Below, piece after piece: positions 13,225 to 64,000 of a stretch of DNA of 64,000 nt. The position numbers and the translations under genes are program-made. The stretch spans positions 104,896,428 through 104,960,427 of the forward strand of contig JAVGWX010000007.1 of NCBI GenBank assembly GCA_036924085.1, in the 5' to 3' direction. The DNA is from Ariolimax columbianus (Eukaryota; Mollusca; Gastropoda; Stylommatophora; Arionidae). Every line of letters starts with the position of its first letter. Positions within the stretch are counted from its first letter, which is position 1. The notes under the pieces are model-generated. The model was not told the origin of the DNA. It saw nothing but the letters and a program-made list of their open reading frames with translations, and made no database searches.

Positions 13225-13409
13225 TCAGACGGTCGCCTGGGCTGCACCGGCGGCTGAAGCTTGTGACATTCTCTTAAACTCAAAGTACTCCACATAGCCA
13301 TTCTTGTCCTGATCAAATGTCTCGAGGATCCCGTCAACTGTCTTGGCCAGGTCCTCATCAGACAAGACTGGGCCGAGCTGCTGATCATTGTTGCCGGTCG
13401 TATTCTGTT
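13225..13409 (-). CDS. MCFD2: MCFD2-like exon 3 (EF-hand 2 and C-terminus)
   Basis: 185 nt including the TGA at 13227-13225. The acceptor is ATGTTATTTACAG at 13410. Encodes LSDEDLAKTVDGILETFDQD, the second Ca2+ loop, then a short Ala-rich tail after FKRMSQ. The family usually ends soon after the second EF-hand, as here. I could not identify a polyadenylation signal with confidence. Confidence 0.87.
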
Positions 13410-14629: not shown

Positions 14630-16793
14630 AGGTATGTAGACAGACACATGGATTGATGGACGGAACAAAAGACACGAGAGAGAGTATCTAAATAACACAA
14701 AAAAGTATATTGAATTGAGAGAGAGAACCTATATAAAACATAATCTATATAACAGAAAGAGAGAGAGATTATCTATAACAGAGATTGAGAGAATATTACA
14801 GTGGCGAGGGGGTGACCTTCTTAGAACTGTAAGAGAGCATCTATATAACAGAGAGAGAGTATCTATATAACAGAGAGAGAGTATCTATATAACAGAGAGA
14901 GAGAATCTATATAACAGAGAATGAGAGAGTATCTATATCACAGAGAGTATCTATAACAGAGAGAGCATCTATATAACAGAGAGAGTATCTATAACAGAGA
15001 GAGTATCTATAACAGAGAGAGCATCTATATAACAGAGAGAGTATCTATAACAGAGAGAGTATCTATATAACAGAGAAAGTATCTATACAACAGAGAGAGT
15101 ATCTATAACAGAGAGAGAGAGTACTGACGAAGTCCATAAGCCTGACCTTGGTGGACGTGAGTGACAGCTTGAACAATCTCCGAGCCATCCAGCTGGTTGT
15201 TGTTGTCGTAGTCGTGCAGCTTGAAGTAGTGGAACTCTAGCTCCTCCTGGCTCATCTCATCCTTGGATTTGGTGGCTACAACTTTCTGTAAGTGCTCCAG
15301 GATATGGCTGAGGGGAGAACAGTCTTCTTTCTGGATACTAATGTGGATTTGTGTATTATCTGTGTGGATACTAATGTGGATCTTGTATTATCTGTGTGGA
15401 TACTAATGTGGATCTTGTATTATCTGTGTGGATACTAATGTGGATTTGTGTATTATCTTTGTGGATACTAATGCGGATTTGTGTATTATCTGTGTGGATA
15501 CTAATGTGGATCTTGTATTATCTGTGTGGATACTAATGTGGATCTGTGTATTATCTTTGTGGATACCAATGTGGATTTGTGTATTATCTTTGTGGATACT
15601 AATGTGGATATGTGTATTATCTGCGTGGATACTAATGTGGATATCTGTATTATCTGCGTGGATACTAATGTGCATCTGTGTATTATCTGTGTGGATACTA
15701 TTGTGGATCTGTGTGGATACCAATGTGGATCTGTGTATTATCTGTGTGGATACTAATGTGGATCTGTGTATTATCTGTGTGGATGCCAATGTGGATCTGT
15801 GTATTATCTGTGTGGAGACTAATGTGGATTTGTGTATTATCTGTGTGGATACTAATGTGGATCTGTGTATTATCTGTGTGGATACCAATGTGGATCTGTG
15901 TATTATCTGTGTGGATGATGATAAAGCACAAGCCTCACACCACACCTCGAGACACACACAATACTCTGAGCCTCAGACAAGCCACCTAGCAGTACTTACT
16001 CAGCATTGTGAACCTCAGACAAGCCACCTAGCAGTACTTACTCAGCATTGTGAGCCTCAGACAAGCCACCTTGCAGCACTTACTCAGCATTGTGAGCCTC
16101 AGACAAGCCACCTAGCAGTACTTACTCAGCATTGTGAACCTCAGACAAGCCACCTAGCAGCACTTACTCAGCATTGTGAACCTCAGACAAGCCACCTAGC
16201 AGTACTTACTCAGCATTGTGAGCCTCAGACAAGCCACCTAGCAGTACTTACTCAGCATTGTGAACCTCAGACAAGCCACCTAGCAGTACTTACTCAGCAT
16301 TGTGAGCCTCAGACAAGCCACCTAGCAGCACTTACTCAGCATTGTGAGCCTCAGACAAGCCACCTAGCAGTACTTACTCAGCATTGTGAGCCTCAGACAA
16401 GCCACCTAGCAGTACTTACTCAGCATTGTGAGCCTCAGACAAGCCACCTAGCAGTACTTACTCAGCATTGTGAGCCTCAGACAAGCCACCTAGCAGTACT
16501 TACTCAGCATTGTGAGCCTCAGAAGCAAACTCCAGTGGTTTCCCATGATGACCATGCCCATGCCCCTCTTGGTGTGCCTGATCATGTTGCTGTTGGTGTG
16601 GCTGATTATTTTGCTGTTGGTGTGCCTGATCATGTTGCTGTTGGTGCTGCTGTTGGTGTGGCTGATCATGTTGCTGCTGGTGTTGTGGCTGACCATGAGG
16701 AGGCTGACGAGGAGGAACACCTGGAGGCTGTTGTGTGCTGACAGTTATAAGAGACAGCAGAAGCAGGCTGGGCAGTACCCTCATGTTCATCAT
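13225..16793 (-). CDS. MCFD2: MCFD2-like secreted EF-hand protein, three coding exons
   Basis: Joined coding exons 16793-16504, 15307-15147 and 13409-13225 give 636 nt, or 211 residues plus stop. Residues 1 to about 20 (MMNMRVLPSLLLLSLITV) look like a signal peptide. Residues about 22-85 are a Gln/His/Pro-rich stretch. Then follow HILEHLQKVVATKSKDEMSQ and EF-hand 1 (loop DYDNNNQLDGSE), the linker VTHVHQEQN, and EF-hand 2 (loop DQDKNGYVEYFE). Both loops have acidic residues at positions 1, 3 and 12. The order and the words HYFKLHDYD and THVH match animal MCFD2, the luminal Ca2+-binding partner of LMAN1/ERGIC-53 in ER-to-Golgi cargo export. That role is family knowledge. Intron phases 2 and 1 agree across the joins. 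The upstream ATGs at 16793, 16790 and 16784 are alternatives. A CGREF1-like paralogue is the main other possibility. Confidence 0.88.
13462..13621. repeat. 24-bp minisatellite in intron 2, 6 copies
   Basis: Units of AATCATTGGGAGAAATCTCT followed by GCAC. Lies about 55 bp from the exon 3 acceptor. Confidence 0.92.
13640..14283. repeat. 21-bp minisatellite in intron 2, about 30 copies
   Basis: Units of GAATATGGGAATTGTATGAGT. The left part is degenerate and the right part (13960-14283) nearly uniform, the usual gradient from old to recent copies. ORFs on both strands (MSEYGNC and HSYNSHI) are artefacts. Confidence 0.93.
14565..14622. repeat. (GA)n microsatellite in intron 2
   Basis: About 29 uninterrupted GA dinucleotides. 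The surrounding 14284-14690 is otherwise unremarkable intron sequence with scattered GAGA words. Confidence 0.97.
14690..15120. repeat. GAGAGTATCTATA(TA)ACA array abutting exon 2 donor side
   Basis: Imperfect 18-24-bp units of AACAGAGAGAGTATCTATAT. On the gene's strand each unit reads CTCTCTCTGTTATAG, a pyrimidine run ending in AG that resembles a 3' splice site, repeated many times immediately downstream of the exon 2 donor. Confidence 0.88.
15147..15307 (-). CDS. MCFD2: MCFD2-like exon 2 (EF-hand 1)
   Basis: 161 nt. The acceptor is TTCTCCCCTCAG before CCATATCC. The donor is CCAAG before GTCAGG at 15146, chosen because it gives phase 1 and joins to exon 3 as VHQEQNTT. Reading past it runs into the TC-rich array. 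Encodes HILEHL, MSQEELEFHYFKLHDYDNNN and the first Ca2+ loop. Confidence 0.87.
15325..15917. repeat. 30-bp minisatellite in intron 1, about 20 copies
   Basis: Units of TGTGTATTATCTGTGTGGAT followed by ACTAATGTGGATC. Lies about 20 bp from the exon 2 acceptor. ORFs (MDTNVDLCIIC and STQIIHRS) are repeat artefacts. Confidence 0.94.
15960..16523. repeat. 42-bp minisatellite built from the exon 1/intron 1 junction, 13 copies
   Basis: On the gene's strand each 42-bp unit is about 20 nt of exon 1 end (TCTGAGGCTCACAATGCTGA) plus about 22 nt of intron start (GTAAGTACTGC and GGTGGCTTG). Donor GT positions run from 16503 down to 15999 in exact 42-bp steps, giving 13 identical GTAAGT donors. The first in transcription order is the coding one. 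Using any later donor would include the in-frame TAA that lies inside GAG-TAA-GTA. Confidence 0.96.
16504..16793 (-). CDS. MCFD2: MCFD2-like exon 1 (signal peptide and His/Gln-rich region)
   Basis: 290 coding nt ending ...CACAATGCTGA before GTAAGT (donor at 16503), phase 2. The start is set by the signal peptide. Just upstream, the minus strand reads TTCTCCATCTCCAG followed by TGACAGACG, a credible acceptor near 16815, so a 5'-UTR exon may exist farther upstream. The repeated HQQQHDQAHQ-type segment (plus-strand GTTGGTGTGGCTGATCATGTT) is itself a degenerate coding repeat. Confidence 0.85.
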
Positions 16794-16829
16794 GGCACGA
16801 ACGTCTGTCACTGGAGATGGAGAACAAGC

Positions 16830-17822
16830 TGACTCACCACAGGGCTACTACACCACCACAGGCTACTGCACCACCACAGAGCTACTGCACCACAGGGCTA
16901 CTGCACCACAGGGCTACTACACCACAGGGCTACTTCACCACCCCAGGGCTGCTACACCACCCCAGGGCTACTACACCACCCCAGGGCTACTACACCACAG
17001 GGCTACTGCACCACCACATGGCTACTTCACCACCACAGGGCTACTGCACCACCACAGGCTACACCACAGGGCTACTGCACCACATGGCTACTGCACCACC
17101 ACAGGGCTACTACACCATGGGGCTACTGCACCACAGGGCTACTGCACCACAGGGCAACTGCACCACCACAGGCTACTACACCACAGGGCTACTGCACCAC
17201 CCCAGGGCTACTGCACCACCACAGGCTACTACACCGCCACAGACTACTGTACCACCACAGGGCTACTACACCACCACAGGGCTACTGCACCACCACAGGG
17301 CTACTGCACCACAGGGCTACTACACTACACGGCTACTGCACTACACGGCTACTGCACCACAGGGCTACTACACCACCACAGGGCTACTACACCACCACAT
17401 GGCTACTGCACCACCACATGGCTACTGCAACACCACAGGCCACTGCACCACAGGGCTACTGCACCACCACAGGCTACTACACCACAACTATTGCACCACA
17501 ACATGGCTACTGCACCACCACAGGGCTACTACACCACAACTATTGCACCACAACACGGCTACTGCCCCACCACAGGGCTACTACACCACCACAGGCTACT
17601 ATGCACCACCACAGGGCTACTACACCACCACAGGCTACTATGCACCACCACAGGGCTACTACACCACCACAGGCTACTACACCATCACAGGGCTACTACA
17701 CCACCACAGGGCTACTACACCACCACAGGGCTACACCACCACAGGGCTACTACGCCACCACAGGGCTACTACACCACCACAGGGCTACTACGCCACCACA
17801 GGGCTACTACACCACCACAGCT
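16830..17822. repeat. 18-20-bp minisatellite just upstream of exon 1, about 50 copies
   Basis: Units of GGGCTACTACACCACCACA with TAC/TGC and CAC variants. It starts within 40 bp of the MCFD2-like start codon, on the 5' side, so it lies in the 5' UTR, a 5' intron or the promoter. Long TTP/HHH-rich ORFs across it are artefacts. Unique DNA at 17823-18019 shows nothing recognisable. Confidence 0.94.
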
Positions 17823-39151: not shown

Positions 39152-40615
39152 TCAGACCTCAACTTCAATGACTCTAACGAAGGCAGCGGTCAACTCAAGG
39201 CTATGTACGCTTCCGTACAGCTTCTCGTGGAAGGACACTGGCTGTTGCCAAATGCTACTTCTTTTGTCGGTATACAGTGGACAAGACTGCAAAATATGTT
39301 TTGCACAAAGATCTGTAGTGCCAATCTTGAACTTGTTGTACAGATGGTATCTAAATCTATGGGGACCTGTGCGTAGCCGGAGAATTATCACCTGGTCTCG
39401 CCTGGAGAGTTGATGGTAGGCATCGTTTTCTATGTGGCCAGGGTGGTCTTTTTTCCATTTTGCACTGCACGTTGCCCTGATGAATGATTTTGTCTCATTG
39501 TATGTGATTTCTGTATCACTCTGCTGCAGCATTCCTCCCTCTCTGGTGAGTCTGTCTGCCTCCTCGTTGCTTTGAATATCGCAGTGGGCTGGTATCCACT
39601 GGACTGTGCTATTTTTTTGGAAGCACTGGGAGAGGCGTTCGAAAGAGTCTGCCAGAGCACCAAGTTCATTTTTGTGCTGGTTCTTGAGCACCATTAACAC
39701 TGCGAGAGCGTCTGTGAAAATGACTACTTGCATTTCTGCCTGCTCCTTATGGTCTATAAGGATTTCAGCTGCTTGTCTCATGGCACTCGCTTCGGCACTG
39801 AAGTTGATGCAGCGTCTCCCAGTGGCAAATGCTGCTGAGTATACTTTGCTTTGTAGTTTTATAGCGATGCCTCCTTCCCCGTTTCCAATGGCATCTTTGG
39901 CTGAGCCATTCGTATAGGCGTGCGTCCAGGCCGGTGGTGGACATTTTTGGTTGATGTAATTTGTGACTGTGTGTTTTTTTCTGTTCCTTTGTTTGTGTCT
40001 TTTTGTCTTCGGTGTTGGGGATATTGCAAATAATATCAGGGAACGGTCTTCCTTTCCAGAGGCAGCGGATGGAGCATGCTGGTTTTGGTTTTTTTCGTTT
40101 AAGAGTGCAGCATTGTTTTTAGTCTTTTCTTTTACCTGGACTGTAAAACTTTTCCTTTTTAGCCTGCCGCGTCCCAACCCATTTAGTCTGTGATGCATCG
40201 GGTGGTCCATGATTTGTTTAAAATTTTCCGCTTGCTGCAGTCTCGGCGGTCGTCCATTGGCTGTAGCCCAGTCATAGCTTCCAGGCCTTTTATTTGGGTG
40301 GACTTCAGGGCTCATGTTATGATACGGGCTGCTTGGTTCTGGGTGCGCCCTATTTGGGTGGACTTCAGGGCTCCTGTTATCATACGGGCTGCTTGGTTCT
40401 GGGTGCGCCCTATTTGGGTGGACTTCGGGGCTCCAGATCATACGGGCTGCTTGGTTCTGTGTGCGCCCTATTTTGTCAAAGTTTGATTTGGATGCCGTGG
40501 ACCAAGCTGCAATGCCGTATTCCAAAACTGGTCTCACTCTGCCTGTGTGTAATTTCTTGAGTGTGTTTCCGTCAGCACCCCAAGCAGTACCAGCAAGTTT
40601 CTTCATGATGGACAT
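39152..40615 (-). CDS. LINE-H thumb and RNase H ORF (487 codons)
   Basis: The longest transposon frame in the window. Residues 1-60 are the RT thumb (MSIMKKLAGTAWGADGNTLK, VRPVLEYGIAAWSTAS). Residues about 64-111 are a 20-residue repeat in 2.5 copies (PEVHPNRAHPEPSSPY), produced by a 60-bp in-frame array. Residues about 112-170 are connector (GRGRLKRKSF). Residues about 235-375 are RNase H: AYTNGSAKDAIGNGEGG, FSAEASAMRQAAEI, VIFTDALAVL and WIPAHCDIQSNEEADRL. The first catalytic Asp of the usual T-D-G-S is Asn, while E, the second D and the last D remain. The C-terminus has H-x-L-Y-N-K...C...H-I-L-x-x-C-P. The ORF presumably continued upstream from RT before a frame break near 40650. Confidence 0.85.
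   Translation of the reverse strand: MSIMKKLAGTAWGADGNTLKKLHTGRVRPVLEYGIAAWSTASKSNFDKIGRTQNQAARMIWSPEVHPNRAHPEPSSPYDNRSPEVHPNRAHPEPSSPYHNMSPEVHPNKRPGSYDWATANGRPPRLQQAENFKQIMDHPMHHRLNGLGRGRLKRKSFTVQVKEKTKNNAALLNEKNQNQHAPSAASGKEDRSLILFAISPTPKTKRHKQRNRKKHTVTNYINQKCPPPAWTHAYTNGSAKDAIGNGEGGIAIKLQSKVYSAAFATGRRCINFSAEASAMRQAAEILIDHKEQAEMQVVIFTDALAVLMVLKNQHKNELGALADSFERLSQCFQKNSTVQWIPAHCDIQSNEEADRLTREGGMLQQSDTEITYNETKSFIRATCSAKWKKDHPGHIENDAYHQLSRRDQVIILRLRTGPHRFRYHLYNKFKIGTTDLCAKHILQSCPLYTDKRSSIWQQPVSFHEKLYGSVHSLELTAAFVRVIEVEV
40285..40470. repeat. 60-bp in-frame array inside LINE-H ORF, about 3 copies
   Basis: Units of CCTATTTGGGTGGACTTCAG, GGCTCCTGTTATCATACGGG and CTGCTTGGTTCTGGGTGCGC. The normal sequence is NQAARMI after the thumb. 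Repetition inserts 20-residue blocks without breaking the frame. Confidence 0.92.
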
Positions 40616-40648
40616 GCGTAGCCTCGCCCTCAGCTGGGTCTTTAAAAT

Positions 40649-41622
40649 TTACGTTTTCCACGTGAGACGCCGGTCTAAGAAAACTCCTAAAAAGGTTGGA
40701 GCCTGATCTTTTCCATTTAATTGGAGTTTTACCTGGTGCCGTGTGTTTGACAGGGAGAAGATGGTATGTGTTGTTTTTTGTTCATTTATTTTTAGTAACC
40801 AGGTCTTGGACCATCTTTCGAGGGCTGCCACAGAGCCTTGCATTCATGTGCTGGCTGTAGTGATGTGTTTTTCAGTAGTCCACATGGCCAGGTCATCAGC
40901 GTAGAGAGAATAGTGGGTAGTTTTGTGGAGGTTGTTGGCGATGTCATTTATGTAAATAAGGAAGAGTGTAGGGGAGAGGACACCACCATGGGGAACACTT
41001 TGTTCCATGGTTTCCTTTTTGCTGGTATGCCCTTGGACCTGCACTCTTGCTGTTCTATTTTCTAAGTAGTTTCTGATCCACTTGTACATTTTCTCCCCAT
41101 ACTCCATATTGCAGCATTTTTCCACGCAGCCCGTCTTTCCATACTTGGTCGAAGGCTTTTTCCAGGTCTACCCATACAGCCAGAGTGTGTTTTCCTTCCT
41201 GGAAAGCGTCTTCGATTTCTTGTGCTATGTGGATTACCTGATCTTCCGTGGACCTGTGCTGCATGAAGCCTGCTTGTTGTGGTATAATGATTTGTTTTTC
41301 TTCGAGGTGCCAGCTGTCTGGTATTTATTATTTTTTCCATGAGCTTGCCTGTGCAGCTCAGGAGACTGATTGGCCTATAGCTCTTTGGGTCAAGTTTATC
41401 TTTATTTTTCTTCAGGATGGGGATCATTCGTGCTTCTTTCCACACTTGAGGTACAATGCCACGCTTCCAGCTGCAGTTCATGATCGCGAGGAGTATTTTC
41501 TTCGCAGTGCCACCCAATCTCATGAGCATGTCGTTGGTTACCCCGTCTTTTCCAGGTGACTTTCTTGGTTTGAGGGAGTCAATGGCTGCAGCAAGTTCCT
41601 TCATGGGCAGGTTGGTTGTCAT
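40649..41622 (-). pseudogene. LINE-H reverse transcriptase palm and fingers
   Basis: In order on the minus strand: LPMKELAAAIDSLKPRKSPG and KDGVTNDML (41615-41530); VPQVWKEARMIPILKKNKDK and YRPISLLSCTGKLMEKII (41450-41350); then after a break STEDQVIHIAQEIEDAFQEG and AVWVDLEKAFDQVW (41255-41150). After another one-base break: WIRNYLENRTARVQVQGHTS, GGVLSPTLFLIYINDI and YADDLAMW (41100-40880). Last is LERWSKTWLLKINEQKT and FLGVFLDRRLTWKT (40820-40650). All palm Asp residues are present (VDLEK, YADD). Three small frame breaks separate the blocks. QGG of the usual VPQGGVLSP is HGG. Confidence 0.85.
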
Positions 41623-42415
41623 ATGTTGGTCAGGTTGGTTGTCATATGTTGGTCAGGTTAGTTGTCATATGCTGGGCAGGTTGGTTGTCATATGTTGGTC
41701 AGGTTGGTTGTCATATGCTGGGCAGGTTGGTTGTCATATGTTGGGCAGGTTGGTTGTCATATGCTGGGCAGGTTGGTTGTCATATGCTGGGCAGGTTGGT
41801 TATCATGTGCTGCTCTGGGCAGGCTGGTTGTCATATGCTCCTCTGGGAAGGTTGGTTGTCATATGCTTCTCTGGGCAGGCTGGTTGTCATGTGCTGCTCT
41901 GGGCAGGCTGATTGTCATATGCTCCTCTGGGAAGGTTGGTTGTCATATGCTCCTCTGGGAAGGTTGGTTGTCATATGCTGCTCTGGGCAGGCTGATTGTC
42001 ATATGCTCCTCTGAGCAGATTGGTTGTCATATGCTCTTCTGGGCAGGTTGGTTGTCATATGTTCCTCTGGGAAGGTTGGTTGTCATATGCTCCTCTGGGC
42101 AGATTGGTTGTCATATGCTCTTCTGGGCAGGTTGGTTGTCATATGTTCCTCTGGGAAGGTTGGTTGTCATATGCTCCTCTGGGAAGGTTGGTTGTCATAT
42201 GTTCCTCTGGGAAGGTTGGTTGTCATATGTTCCTCTGGGAAGGTTGGTTGTCATATGTTCCTCTGGGAAGGTTGGTTGTCATATGTTCCTCTGGGAAGGT
42301 TGGTTGTCATATGTTCCTCTGGGAAGGTTGGTTGTCATATGTTCCTCTGGGAAGGTTGGTTGTCATATGCTCCTCTGGGAAGGTTGGTTGTCATATGCTG
42401 CTCTGTGCAGGCTAA
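41605..42415. repeat. 23/28-bp compound minisatellite between linker and RT, about 31 copies
   Basis: Right-hand copies (42000-42400) are 28 bp, GTTGGTTGTCATATGTTCCT followed by CTGGGAAG. Left-hand copies (41605-41810) are 23 bp, GTTGGTTGTCATATGCTGGGCAG. The source is the codons for MTTNLP just before the RT. The period differs from a multiple of three, so it breaks the ORF. Confidence 0.95.
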
Positions 42416-42457
42416 TGACTTTTTTTTAAAGATCTATCTCTGTAGCCATTGCCTGTT

Positions 42458-43066
42458 TTATTGCAGGTGGGATATGATTCGGGCTCGCTTGCGGTAATGT
42501 TTTATGAATGCGTTAGCTGCCTGTGTTCTGGTCAGAATTTTCCCGCTCAGCTGTACTGCGATTTCGTGGTTCCTGCAGTCCTCGTTGTTTAGGGCTTTGG
42601 CTAGCCTCCATAGTTTTCTGCCGTCTTTGTCCAGATTTAGCGCTTCAGTTGTTTTTATCCAGATGTTTCTCGCTGAGCTATTTAGTGTTGTTTTGTACTT
42701 TGCTGCAATAGCTTTGTAGGAGATGTTAGCCTGTTTCGATCTTTCCATTTCTGCTCTTCCTCTGGCTTCTGTCAGTTGTTCTTCCAGTTCCTGAAGTTCT
42801 GCTGTCCAGTAAGGTTTGTAGTCTCTTCTTGCTCCTTGGGGTATTGATTCGAGGGCAGCTCTCAGGACAGCTTTGTTGAAGCTTTCGGCTAGTTCCCCGA
42901 TTCTTATATTTCGGATGTTAATCTGGCTGCAGTACATGTCAGACAGCGTTGAAAAGAGGTTCCAGTTTATTTTTTTGTAATTCCATCGGGGCAGTGGCTT
43001 ATTTTCTTGGGCTGTGTGTTCCATATTAATAACCAGCTTTATTGGTTTGTGAACACTGCCTGCCAA
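42458..43066 (-). CDS. LINE-H endonuclease-RT linker ORF
   Basis: A 202-codon open frame of unbiased composition: LPRWNYKKINWNLFSTLSDM, ELAESFNKAVLRAALESIPQ, RDYKPYWTAELQELEEQLTE, ARNIWIKTTEALNLDKDGRK and LWRLAKALNNED. The W-N-Y-x-K-x-x-W and K-x-Y-W-x-x-E-L blocks are characteristic of the linker between the AP endonuclease and RT of I/Jockey-type LINEs. It stops just before the 28-bp array. Upstream, 43067-43156 joins it to the endonuclease across one stop. Confidence 0.85.
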   Translation of the reverse strand: MAGSVHKPIKLVINMEHTAQENKPLPRWNYKKINWNLFSTLSDMYCSQINIRNIRIGELAESFNKAVLRAALESIPQGARRDYKPYWTAELQELEEQLTEARGRAEMERSKQANISYKAIAAKYKTTLNSSARNIWIKTTEALNLDKDGRKLWRLAKALNNEDCRNHEIAVQLSGKILTRTQAANAFIKHYRKRARIISHLQ

Positions 43067-43449
43067 TTGGTCTAGTACAACTCTGTTTATCTTGTGACTG
43101 ATGCCTCTTGTCGAAAATGCAAGGTCGCGTGTTGAGATGGACTGCCATCTTCTTGATTAAAAACAGGGCGCATCTTCTGCTATGTTAATGAGCTGTAGGT
43201 TACTATCGATTTCCCAGTCTTCCACTTCGGTGCCGCGTGTATCAGTATCCGTGTATCCACATCTTTCTGAGTGGCTATTGAAGTCTCCGACAAATACGCA
43301 ATTTGAGTGTTGCACCTCTATTGATGTCAGTGAGAGATCCTTATCTGGTGGGGGGGGGGGGGGGGGGCAGTACAGATTTATCACTCTCATGGTTTGTTCA
43401 TCTACACTGACATCGGCACCAATGATTTCAGTTTGGTTGCTTGTGTGAG

Positions 43450-44600
43450 CTGGGACTTCTCTGCATGGTAGAGAGTTTCTAGTTAGCGTGATCACTCCAC
43501 CTTTGTGGACTTCTCTGCATGGTAGAGAGTTTCTAGTTAGCATGATCACTCCACCTTTGTGGTCTTCTCTGCATGGTAGAGAGTTTCTAGTTAGCATGAT
43601 CACTCCACCTTTGTGGCCTTCTCTGCATGGTAGAGAGTTTCTAGTTAGCATGATCACTCCACCTTTGTGGCCTTCTCTGCATGGTAGAGAGTTTCTAGTT
43701 AGCATGATCACTCCACCTTTGTGGCCTTCTCTGCATGGTAGAGAGTTTCTAGTTAGCGTGATCACTCCACCTTTGTGGACTTCTCTGCATGTTAGAGAGT
43801 TTCTAGTTAGCGTGATCACTCCACCTTTGTGGCCTTCTCTGCATGTTAGAGAGTTTCTAGTTAGCATGATCACTCCACCTTTGTGGCCTTCTCTGCATGG
43901 TAGAGAGTTTCTAGTTAGCGTGATCACTCCACCTTTGTGGACTTCTCTGCATGGTAGAGAGTTTCTAGTTAGCATGATCACTCCACCTTTGTGGCCTTCT
44001 CTGCATGTTAGAGAGTTTCTAGTTAGCGTGATCACTCCACCTTTGTGGCCTTCTCTGCGTGGTAGAGAGTTTCTAGTTAGCATGATCACTCCACCTTTGT
44101 GGCCTTCTCTGCATGGTAGAGAGTTTCTAGTTAGCGTGATCACTCCACCTTTGTGGCCTTCTCTGCATGGTAGAGAGTTTCTAGTTAGCGTGATCACTCC
44201 ACCTTTGTGGACTTCTCTGCATGGTAGAGAGTTTCTAGTTAGCATGATCACTCCACCTTTGTGGCCTTCTCTGCATGGTAGAGAGTTTCTAGTTAGCGTG
44301 ATCACTCCACCTTTGTGGACTTCTCTGCATGGTAGAGAGTTTCTAGTTAGCATGATCACTCCACCTTTGTGGCCTTCTCTGCATGGTAGAGAGTTTCTAG
44401 TTAGCATGATCACTCCACCTTTGTGGCCTTCTCTGCATGGTAGAGAGTTTCTAGTTAGCATGATCACTCCACGTGTGTGGCCTTCTCTGCATGGTAGAGA
44501 GTTTCTAGTTAGCATGATCACTCCACCTTTGTGGCCTTCTCTGCATGGTAGAGAGTTTCTAATTAGCATGACCACTCCACCTTTGTGGCCCTCTCTGTCA
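43450..44600. repeat. 54-bp in-frame minisatellite in the endonuclease, about 21 copies
   Basis: Units of TTCTCTGCATGGTAGAGAGT, TTCTAGTTAGCATGATCACT and CCACCTTTGTGGCC, with CATG/CGTG, GGCC/GGAC and GGTAG/GTTAG variants. Translates on the minus strand as CREGHKGGVIMLTRNSLP. The antisense frame is also open, which is a property of the unit. Confidence 0.97.
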
Positions 44601-44629
44601 AGCCGAAGGGTTTCGTATCCTCGTATCAG

Positions 44630-44880
44630 GAACCCATGATTTGGGTTCAGGTGGGTCTCTTGGATGTATCAGGAACCCATGATTTGGGTTCAGGTGGGTC
44701 TCTTGGATGTATCAGGAACCCATGATTTGGGTTCAGGTGGGTCTCTTGGATGTATCAGGAACCCATGATTTGGGTTAAGGTGGGTCTCTTGGATGTATCA
44801 GGAACCCATGATTTGGGTTCAGGTGGGTCTCTTGGTTGTATCAGGAACCCATGATTTATGTTTAGGTGGGTCTCTTGGAT
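44630..44880. repeat. 43-bp minisatellite in the endonuclease, 6 copies
   Basis: Units of ATCAGGAACCCATGATTTGG, GTTCAGGTGGGTCTCTTGGA and TGT, from the ETHLNINHGFLI codons. The non-triplet period breaks the frame. Confidence 0.95.
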
Positions 44881-62235: not shown

Positions 62236-62312
62236 ATGTGCTATAACAGTTTGGTATGTACTATAGCAGTTTTGTATGGGCTATAACCTTTTAGTATGGG
62301 CTATAACAGTTA
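62236..62312. repeat. About 20-bp minisatellite, right of LINE-Z copy 5
   Basis: Units of GCTATAACAGTTTGGTATGT with GGGCTATAACCTTTTAGTAT variants, the same set as at 57466-57544. Confidence 0.85.
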
Positions 62313-62315
62313 GAT

Positions 62316-64000
62316 CTCATAGATACAGCAACAGAGATCGTGGGATGCCACCAAACAAAAAAGAAGCCATGGGTGACCAAAGAAATTCTAGACCTTTGTG
62401 ATAGAAGGTCACTGAAAAACCAAAATTACCGATATGATGAGGTTGGCAGATATAAAGATGTCAAGAATGCAATACAACAAAAGATGAGAGAGGCAAAAGA
62501 AGCGGGGATATGTGAGCAATGTGCAAACATCGAAGAGGGATTAAACAGAAATGATGCTAAAGGAGCATACAAGGTTGTCAAAGAACTGGTAACACCAAGA
62601 CAAGGCAGGAACTTTATGATCCATGATAAAAGTGGCAAATGCCTTATTGAGGAAAATGACGTACTGGTACGATGGACAGAGTACTGTTCCGAGTTATATA
62701 ACTATGAAGGACGAAATGAACCTGAGAAAATAATCCCTCCAACATCAACTATAGAGGATAATCAACTGATAATGAAGGAAGAGGTAACTGCAGCGGTAAA
62801 GACATTGAGAAGAGGGAAGGCGGCTGACGTGGACAATATACCAGCAGAGCTCTTACAGGCAGGTGGAGAGGTAGTGGTAGAAAGCCTGACAAACATCTGC
62901 AACAAAATATGGGCGACGGGAAACTGGCCGAACTTATGGACAAAATCAATGGTTATACCGTTACATAAGTCTGGAAACCTAAAGCTGTGCCAAAATTACA
63001 GAACAATAAGCCTCATTAGCCACCCTAGCAAGGTCAAGCTTAGATTAATCCTCGACCGATTAAAACCCCAAGCAGAGAACATCATTGCCGAGGAGCAAGC
63101 AGGGTTCAGACCGGGAAGAAGCACTACAGAACAGATATTTAATTTAAGGCTGCTAAGCGAGAAATATCTAGAACAGTAGCAAAAACTGTATCATGTGTTT
63201 GTTGATTTTAAGAAGGCATTTGATAGGGTATGGTATAAACCGCTATGGGCAACTATGAGGGTGTATAAAATCAACGGAAATATTATAACGGTCATTGAAC
63301 ACCTGTATGACAAGGTGTCCAGCGAGGGAACTAGTTTCGCACATCAGTTGGTGTGAGACAGGTGTACACTCTCTCCAACTCTTTTCAATATATTCCTTGA
63401 GGGAATTATGAGTGAAGCACTTGGAGGTCACGTTGGTACTGTCAAGATAGGGGGCCCAACGATTACCAACCTTTGTTTTGCAGATTATATTGGTGGGTTC
63501 AGAAGTAGAACTCCAGGAATGGGTCAGAAGGCTCGATGAAATAGCGCTTGACTACGGTATGGAAAGACAAAAATGATGACCAGCAACTCCGAGGGCTTCA
63601 ACAGCAGGATAAAAGCTAACGGTCAGGACCTCGAAGTGGTTGACTGGTTTAAATATCTAGGGTTGATTGTCAGTGATGAAGGATCAAAATGTGAGGTGTT
63701 GGCCAGAATAGCATATACAATAGCTGCGCTTGCACTGCTTAACATAATCTGGCAAGATAAACGGGTAGCACTATGCACGAAAATCAGATTAATGCGTACA
63801 TTGGTCCTGTCAATATTCCTCTATGCTTGTGAGACATGGACAGTTACAGCTGACCTTCAGCGAAGGATACAGGCCTAGGAGATGAGATGTTTCCGAAAAC
63901 TTTTAAAAGTCACGTACAAAGATCGAGTTACAAATGAGGAAATACGAGATAGAATTACAACAGCCTTTTGAAGATCTCTTGGCAATTATCAAAAGAAGAA
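62316..64000 (+). mobile_element. LINE-Y copy 5, runs off the window
   Basis: Starts in the linker near KPWVTKEILDLCDRRSLKN and is cut on the 5' side by the 20-bp array. RT and thumb are present and continue past 64000. The catalytic region reads LCFADYIGGF near 63470, so the second Asp of FADD is Tyr. Stops occur at 63177, 63355, 63540 and elsewhere. Thumb: IKANGQDLEVVDWFKYLGLI and TLVLSIFLYACETWTVTADL (63610-63860), then EMRCFRKLLKVTYKDRVTNE. Confidence 0.87.
62340..63179 (+). CDS. LINE-Y linker and RT N-terminal ORF (279 codons)
   Basis: The longest LINE-Y frame. Residues 1-115 are linker (KKPWVTKEILDLCDRRSLKN, GRNFMIHDKSGKCLIEENDV). From about 135 comes the RT entry: MKEEVTAAVKTLRRGKAADV, DNIPAELLQAGGE, NICNKIWATGNWPNLWTKSM, VIPLHKSGNLKLCQNYRTIS and EEQAGFRPGRSTTEQIFNLR. 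The usual K-S-P-G/A-x-G-x-D is K-A-A-D-V-D. It ends at TAG just before VFVDFKKAFDRVW, which is intact in the next stretch. Part of a transposon, so not a host gene. Confidence 0.83.
   Translation: MGCHQTKKKPWVTKEILDLCDRRSLKNQNYRYDEVGRYKDVKNAIQQKMREAKEAGICEQCANIEEGLNRNDAKGAYKVVKELVTPRQGRNFMIHDKSGKCLIEENDVLVRWTEYCSELYNYEGRNEPEKIIPPTSTIEDNQLIMKEEVTAAVKTLRRGKAADVDNIPAELLQAGGEVVVESLTNICNKIWATGNWPNLWTKSMVIPLHKSGNLKLCQNYRTISLISHPSKVKLRLILDRLKPQAENIIAEEQAGFRPGRSTTEQIFNLRLLSEKYLEQ

What the first reader, a model, noticed from the sequence alone, without database searches (positions are those of the whole stretch)
15960..16523. A host-gene 5' splice site amplified 13 times at exact 42-bp spacing
Seen: the MCFD2-like exon 1/intron 1 junction (20 exon nt plus 22 intron nt) is the unit of a minisatellite, so 13 identical CTGA|GTAAGT donors occur at 16503, 16461 and so on down to 15999. 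The first donor in transcription order makes the correct phase-2 join. Any later donor keeps an in-frame TAA (GAG TAA GTA) and would truncate the protein before both EF-hands. This gives a natural donor-choice array whose copy number could tune productive splicing or act as a U1 decoy. The functional consequence is inference.
Basis: partly seen in the sequence, partly recalled or inferred. Interest (0 to 1): 0.88.

Follow-up and report, generated by a model that had tools for sequence, protein, structure and literature searches.

The report
Splice-donor minisatellite in snail MCFD2-like gene
In a land-snail-like genome crowded with short tandem repeats, one repeat array has copied the end of a gene's coding exon, with its splice signal, thirteen times; the kind is known from amphioxus and a human interferon gene, and this array is most likely tolerated rather than used, though it makes a clean natural test of how cells choose among identical splice sites.

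Summary
A 42-bp minisatellite (15967-16523) has the exon/intron boundary of an MCFD2-like gene as its unit, giving 13 CTGA|GTAAGT donors at 16503-42n; donor 1 gives 211 aa, donors 2-13 all stop at 97 aa. Intron position and phase equal human MCFD2 c.149/150. A paralogue ends its exon with the same CACAATGCTGA, unamplified, so the array derives from the boundary. The exon is probably internal, not exon 1. Samples near contig ends are 43% tandem array, interior 11%; tandem consensus donors are about 12% commoner than a backwards control. The kind is known: amphioxus 'mirages' and human IFI6. Minigenes with two identical donors and long introns used the upstream one exclusively, so I expect donor 1 to dominate and the array to be tolerated. 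I found no support for a selected donor array or U1 decoy, but no RNA was available. Bonus: the coding copy reads Ala where 26 motif-bearing homologues read Ile, Val or Phe, while four intronic copies read Val.

The parts
15967..16523 (-). 42-bp minisatellite whose unit is 20 exon nt + 22 intron nt of the MCFD2-like gene; 13 full copies and a partial one
16504..16793 (-). first coding exon (290 nt, ATG to donor 1): signal-peptide-like start, Gln/His-rich stretch, ...LEFASEAHNA(D)
   Evidence: conserved FASExHNADHI motif across gastropods
16794..16810 (-). 5' untranslated part of the same exon (17 nt), if the acceptor ending at 16811 is real (exon then 307 nt)
   Evidence: acceptor-like CTTGTTCTCCATCTCCAG; paralogue has similar pyrimidine-AG signals upstream of its ATG; inference
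16498..16503 (-). donor 1 GTAAGT, the only one giving the full protein
   Evidence: homology of the junction
15994..15999 (-). donor 13, last of twelve downstream donors (16461 to 15999, every 42 bp), each leaving an in-frame TAA
15332..15916 (-). 33-bp minisatellite filling most of the rest of intron 1
   Evidence: intron 1 is 94% tandem array
15147..15307 (-). second coding exon, EF-hand 1 (acceptor ...TTCTCCCCTCAG|CC; donor CAAG|GTCAGG)
13225..13409 (-). third coding exon, EF-hand 2 and stop
16835..17820 (-). 19-bp minisatellite directly upstream of the exon
14832..15117 (-). 18-20-bp minisatellite in intron 2, units acceptor-like (CTCTCTGTTATAG)

Best explanation
This is a boundary-spanning minisatellite of the kind called 'mirage' in amphioxus. 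In a minisatellite-dense part of a chromosome, an array formed over the ancestral boundary of an MCFD2-like gene and spread into the intron, carrying 20 exon nt per unit. Shown: the array, the 13 identical donors, the conserved position of the junction, the in-frame stop after every later donor. Inferred: the exon is internal and, with long introns on both sides, is recognised across the exon, so the donor nearest the upstream acceptor (donor 1; exon 307 nt against 349-811 nt) is used nearly always. The other twelve are silent intron, with at most slight leakage to donors 2-3 giving messages that end early and are probably degraded. The array is tolerated, not selected. Its turnover also touches the exon end, because copy 1 is itself a repeat unit.
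For: Array and donors. Junction is ancestral: same alignment column and phase as human MCFD2 (D97 pairs with the residue I number E50; human splice variants c.149+5 and c.149+1); paralogue L042 has the same exon end CACAATGCTGA| followed by GTGAGT, boundary not amplified; 25 of 36 homologues carry SExHN at this point and one more TExHN. Environment: 32.7% of the window and 43.4% of 8 samples about 1.3 Mb from contig ends are tandem array, against 10.8% of 20 interior samples; intron 1 is 94% array; the paralogue's 25-bp array starts at about intron base 8. Tandem AGGTAAGT x3: 6,863 matches against 6,144 for the backwards control. Tolerance: with two identical CAG/guaagu donors in an exon-defined minigene the upstream was chosen exclusively in all five constructs (PMC9225289, Results); amphioxus mirages are reported not to disturb splicing (PMC3087553, PMC3902484, passages).
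Against: No transcript of this species was available, so use of donor 1 is not observed. The minigene result is human, with two donors and consensus CAG|GUAAGU; here the exon side is UGA|, mismatched to U1. In the same paper, large exons with two weakened donors were mostly skipped, and for human events in which both exon forms exceed 250 nt, as here, the upstream donor is preferred in only 44%. In human IFI6 two downstream repeat donors are used (PMC4526556 passage), so leakage may not be slight. The upstream untranslated exon was not located. The consensus-donor triple is about 12% more frequent than its control, and AGGTRAG occurs in 3 of 120 sampled array strands against 1.0 for shuffled units (maximum of 50 shuffles 5), so a weak excess is not ruled out.
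Confidence: 0.74

Rival explanations
1. Splicing rheostat or U1 decoy: the donors compete, so copy number sets the share of productive mRNA and the array is kept for that.
For: Thirteen identical donors with the unit a multiple of three and a stop in every extra unit; IFI6 shows that downstream repeat donors can be used.
Against: No excess conservation of the donor among copies (P = 0.43); donor arrays only slightly above the backwards control genome-wide; the experiment with two equal donors predicts upstream use only; the array RNA shows no special fold (20 of 20 shuffles fold at least as well).
Confidence: 0.1
2. Intron-proximal choice: the donor nearest the acceptor (15999) wins, most messages carry the stop, and the gene is largely silenced.
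For: Downstream donors are preferred for short introns and in unfiltered human data (about 60% of events; PMC9225289).
Against: All possible introns here are 692-1196 nt, above the 250-nt limit given for exon definition; the gene keeps an intact 211-aa frame and both EF-hand loops, which a long-silenced gene would be expected to lose.
Confidence: 0.08
3. Assembly artefact: copy number inflated or invented.
For: Units are near identical (97% matches), hard for short reads; no reads were available.
Against: Units differ at three columns in a non-periodic order; the locus lies inside a 106-Mb contig of a 401-contig assembly; similar arrays abound elsewhere in it.
Confidence: 0.06

Closest known systems
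Amphioxus 'mirages' (globin BflGb6/BflGb9, Adh3, troponin C, PGBD5)
   Same: Minisatellite-like tandem copies of an exon-intron boundary, with splice signals in many copies; BflGb9 repeats the donor side, as here; Adh3 units are 10-72 bp, which includes 42; described as not disturbing splicing (passages)
   Different: Here a mollusc and 13 full copies, all with an intact donor, against 6 and 3 units of 150-160 bp in the two BflGb6 haplotypes; splicing, length variation and somatic change could not be tested here
[quoted passage not shown] title seen in reference lists, text not held)
   Same: A minisatellite supplies several donors to one transcript
   Different: In IFI6 two downstream repeat donors are used and different isoforms result (PMC4526556 passage); here every downstream donor brings in a stop
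Intron gain by tandem duplication of AG/GT proto-splice sites (as discussed in PMC3087553; potato RdRp case PMC4974935, start of abstract seen in listing)
   Same: Local duplication multiplies splice sites inside a gene
   Different: No new intron is seen here; the original intron is lengthened

Membership tests
Mirage (boundary-spanning minisatellite) | Tandem minisatellite unit spans an exon-intron boundary | tested here: met
   20 exon + 22 intron nt per unit, 13 copies
Mirage (boundary-spanning minisatellite) | Copies carry splice signals | tested here: met
   13 of 13 full copies carry CTGA|GTAAGT
Mirage (boundary-spanning minisatellite) | Exchange or homogenisation among copies | tested here: inconclusive
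   All four combinations of two variable columns occur, which means exchange or repeated mutation
Mirage (boundary-spanning minisatellite) | Regular splicing undisturbed | not testable with these tools
   No RNA data for this species
Mirage (boundary-spanning minisatellite) | Length variation between alleles or cells | not testable with these tools
   No reads and no second haplotype; no other copy of the array among the listed part of 363 matches
IFI6-type donor minisatellite | Downstream repeat donors would give alternative protein isoforms rather than one truncated product | tested here: not met
   By translation donors 2-13 all give the same 97-aa truncated product; actual use not testable
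MCFD2 | Two-EF-hand protein related to solved MCFD2, with a signal-peptide-like start | tested here: met
   PDB 2vrg E = 1.1e-25; three EF-hand Pfam models above cut-off; signal peptide judged by eye only
MCFD2 | Phase-2 intron at the human c.149/150 position | tested here: met
   Alignment column, exon length 290 nt, human variant names; human residue number recalled

The most novel reading that the evidence does not exclude
The array is a self-homogenising bank of exon ends. Its turnover rewrites the last codons of a conserved gene (the change to Ala in the coding copy came from, or spread through, the intronic copies), and its copy number sets the share of productive message, so a polymorphic minisatellite would act at once as coding mutator and splicing dial.
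Probability: 0.1. Interest if true: 0.75.

Novelty: new member of a known kind. Interest (0 to 1): 0.4.

Why it matters
It is a natural version of a designed splicing experiment: 13 donors with the same ten bases, equal spacing, one acceptor, and a frame that tells productive from unproductive use. RNA from this animal would show whether cross-exon or cross-intron proximity rules in a gastropod. It also shows how a coding exon end can become tied to a repeat array: the residue that is Ile, Val or Phe in 26 of 26 homologues with the [ST]ExHN motif (several of them isoforms of one gene) is Ala in the coding copy while four intronic copies keep Val. The human counterpart of this donor is a disease site (MCFD2 c.149+5G>A and c.149+1G>A).

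Tried and rejected
RNA structure of the array: 20 of 20 shuffles fold at least as well, so donor sequestration has no support. U1 pairing: duplex energies -7.0 and -6.7 kcal/mol for the two unit types, -5.9 for the exon 2 donor and -14.6 for a full consensus; this does not separate donor 1 from the nine other copies with the same +7 base. Selection on donors: three variable columns, none in the donor, P = 0.43. Other EF-hand exons in the window: only the two known loops match the pattern (after earlier patterns of mine missed even the known ones). Rfam: no match at gathering score in the window or L042. Unit elsewhere in the genome: the DNA search gave 363 matches; in the listed part every match besides the gene itself lies within query 159-296, in the Gln/His-coding stretch; the rest were not listed and common words are skipped. 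The pattern search for the unit did not complete. Literature for a mollusc case: the listings (25 of 79 papers shown; 8 of 8; 8 of 8; 5 of 5; 10 of 92; 6 of 6; 5 of 5) showed none by title and abstract start; the library holds open-licence papers only. An earthworm paper (PMC12783039, passages) reports minisatellites inside a first intron, not over a boundary.

Human MCFD2 residue number 50, the U1 5' end, and the expectation that messages with early stops are degraded come from my own knowledge.

Full report
Observation. The window holds on its - strand a gene with coding exons 16793-16504, 15307-15147 and 13409-13225 that joins into a 211-aa frame. Its best solved relative is human MCFD2 (2vrg, E = 1.1e-25). 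Its best named protein matches are from land slugs and snails (Arion 63%, Candidula 72% over 62% of the query, Bradybaena 57%), so the genome (2.29 Gb, 401 contigs) is probably a stylommatophoran gastropod. Tandem Repeats Finder reports 15967-16523, period 42, 13.3 copies, 97% matches. There are 13 exact CTGA|GTAAGT sites, the first intron base at 16503 and then every 42 bases to 15999. Donor 1 gives 211 aa; donors 2-13 each give the same 97 aa ending before the EF-hands. The finding as seen is right.

The junction is real and old. The exon end lies in FASExHNAD-HILEHL, a block conserved across gastropods. In the alignment with human MCFD2 residue D97 pairs with the residue I number E50 (number recalled), whose codon would be split after its second base by the human intron, since human splice variants there are named c.149+5G>A and c.149+1G>A (passages). 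The exon here has 290 coding nt, also phase 2. A search of the whole genome with the protein gave five matches: the three exons of this gene, one paralogous exon at C13:726412-726585, and one weak match on C24 that was not followed (150 of 246 candidates scored). In the stretch fetched around the paralogue (L042; 100 of 10,000 bases read N) the preceding exon ends CACAATGCTGA|GTGAGT. The last 11 exon nt are the same in both genes, and the paralogue's boundary is not amplified, so the array here most simply derives from the boundary and not the reverse.

Setting. 32.7% of the window is tandem array, in 60 merged arrays. Twenty interior stretches of 10 kb average 10.8% (range 0.4 to 38.8%); eight stretches of 6 kb about 1.3 Mb from contig ends average 43.4% (range 18.0 to 79.1%; two of the eight are more than half N). 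The gene lies about 1.4 Mb from the end of contig C7, so it sits in a minisatellite-rich chromosome end, if contig ends are chromosome ends. Intron 1 is 94% array and intron 2 65%. The paralogue, 0.73 Mb from a contig end, has a 25-bp array starting at about base 8 of its intron and a 32-bp array just upstream of its exon. In this setting an array that overruns an exon edge by 20 nt is not very surprising.

Are donor arrays special? Of 80 array strands in the window, 1 carries GTAAGT (shuffled units 0.6), 2 GTRAGT (1.6) and 0 AGGTRAG (0.3); of 120 array strands in the samples, 1 (1.4), 3 (2.8) and 3 (1.0). Genome-wide, three AGGTAAGT words with gaps of 12-42 occur 3,386 + 3,477 times against 2,867 + 3,277 for the pattern read backwards; matches overlap, so one array counts many times. 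The excess is about 12%. Tandem arrays of strong donors are therefore common here and close to control. The rare thing is that one coincides with a coding-exon end. How rare could not be measured without gene models.

How it most likely works. An acceptor-like sequence ends at 16811, leaving 17 nt before the ATG, and the 19-bp array starts 24 nt further upstream. The paralogue has similar pyrimidine-AG signals upstream of its ATG, and in human MCFD2 the c.149 donor belongs to intron 2, so the ATG exon is most likely internal (inference). Exon length would be 307 nt with donor 1 and 349-811 nt with the others; intron 1 would be 1196 to 692 nt. These introns exceed the 250 nt given as the change from intron to exon definition (PMC9225289, passages). 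In that paper, five minigenes with two identical CAG/guaagu donors flanked by 365-nt introns used the upstream donor exclusively, and human events with near-equal donors and long introns prefer the upstream one (first part of the Results section). By that rule donor 1 wins and donors 2-13 are ordinary intron. Against this, the same paper finds the opposite preference for short introns, skipping of large exons when both donors are weak, and only 44% upstream preference among events whose two exon forms both exceed 250 nt (not matched for donor strength), which leaves room for leakage.

Exon end and array seem to evolve together. Three of 42 columns vary among the copies. One of them is the second base of residue 93: copy 1 reads GCT (Ala), as do eight other full copies; copies 7, 9, 10 and 13 read GTT (Val). 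In 26 of 36 homologues, those with the [ST]ExHN motif, the residue is Ile (15), Val (10) or Phe (1), never Ala; several are isoforms of one gene, so they are not independent. The other 10 lack the motif and have Val (3), Pro (2), Ser (2), Gln, Met or Lys. The paralogue has Val and human MCFD2 has Val in the aligned position. So Val is probably ancestral and the coding copy derived, while part of the intronic array keeps the older state. Either the change arose in an intronic copy and reached copy 1, or it arose in copy 1 and spread, or the Val copies are back mutations; the first two mean exchange between exon end and intron. All four combinations of this column and the +7 column occur, which fits exchange but also repeated mutation.

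Comparison. 'Mirages' in amphioxus are minisatellite-like tandem duplications of exon-intron boundaries, with splice signals in many copies, different copy numbers in two haplotypes of one gene (6 and 3) and, by the authors' account of RT-PCR and Adh3 data, no disturbance of splicing (PMC3087553, passages; PMC3902484, passage). [quoted passage not shown] The present case meets the anatomical definition of a mirage; its RNA behaviour is untested. It differs from IFI6 in that extra units carry a stop.

Verdict. A true and tidy example of a known kind in a mollusc, with a very regular unit. The regulatory reading is possible but unsupported. The interest lies in the natural test of donor choice and in the apparent coupling of exon end and intron.

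Noticed in passing
14832-15117 (- strand, intron 2): An 18-20-bp minisatellite just past the exon 2 donor repeats an acceptor-like CTCTCTGTTATAG; 13 pyrimidine-rich TAG sites lie between 15103 and 14841, a mirror image of the donor array.
   Followed up: partly
15967-16523, residue 93: Coding copy has Ala (GCT) where 26 of 26 homologues with the motif have Ile, Val or Phe; array copies 7, 9, 10 and 13 have Val (GTT).
   Followed up: yes
L042 2367-3405 and 3677-6053 (C13 paralogue): The MCFD2 paralogue's exon 1 is also hemmed in by minisatellites; one starts at about base 8 of its intron.
   Followed up: partly
L029-L036: Tandem arrays cover 43% of 8 samples about 1.3 Mb from contig ends against 11% of 20 interior samples; two of the end samples are more than half N.
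   Followed up: partly
39152-44668 (-) and 62307-63179 (+): Retroelement-like frames: RNase H, endonuclease-reverse transcriptase and reverse transcriptase matches above cut-off, and one reverse transcriptase match below it (41062-41652). The frame 43157-44668 contains a 54-bp x 21 repeat; Pfam also reports odd zf-U1 and RL10P matches in it with no single stretch passing.
   Followed up: no
Arion proteins P0016 and P0017: They share the N-terminal half and differ in the second EF-hand, which suggests alternative last exons in gastropod MCFD2 paralogues; no further EF-hand loop was found in this window.
   Followed up: partly
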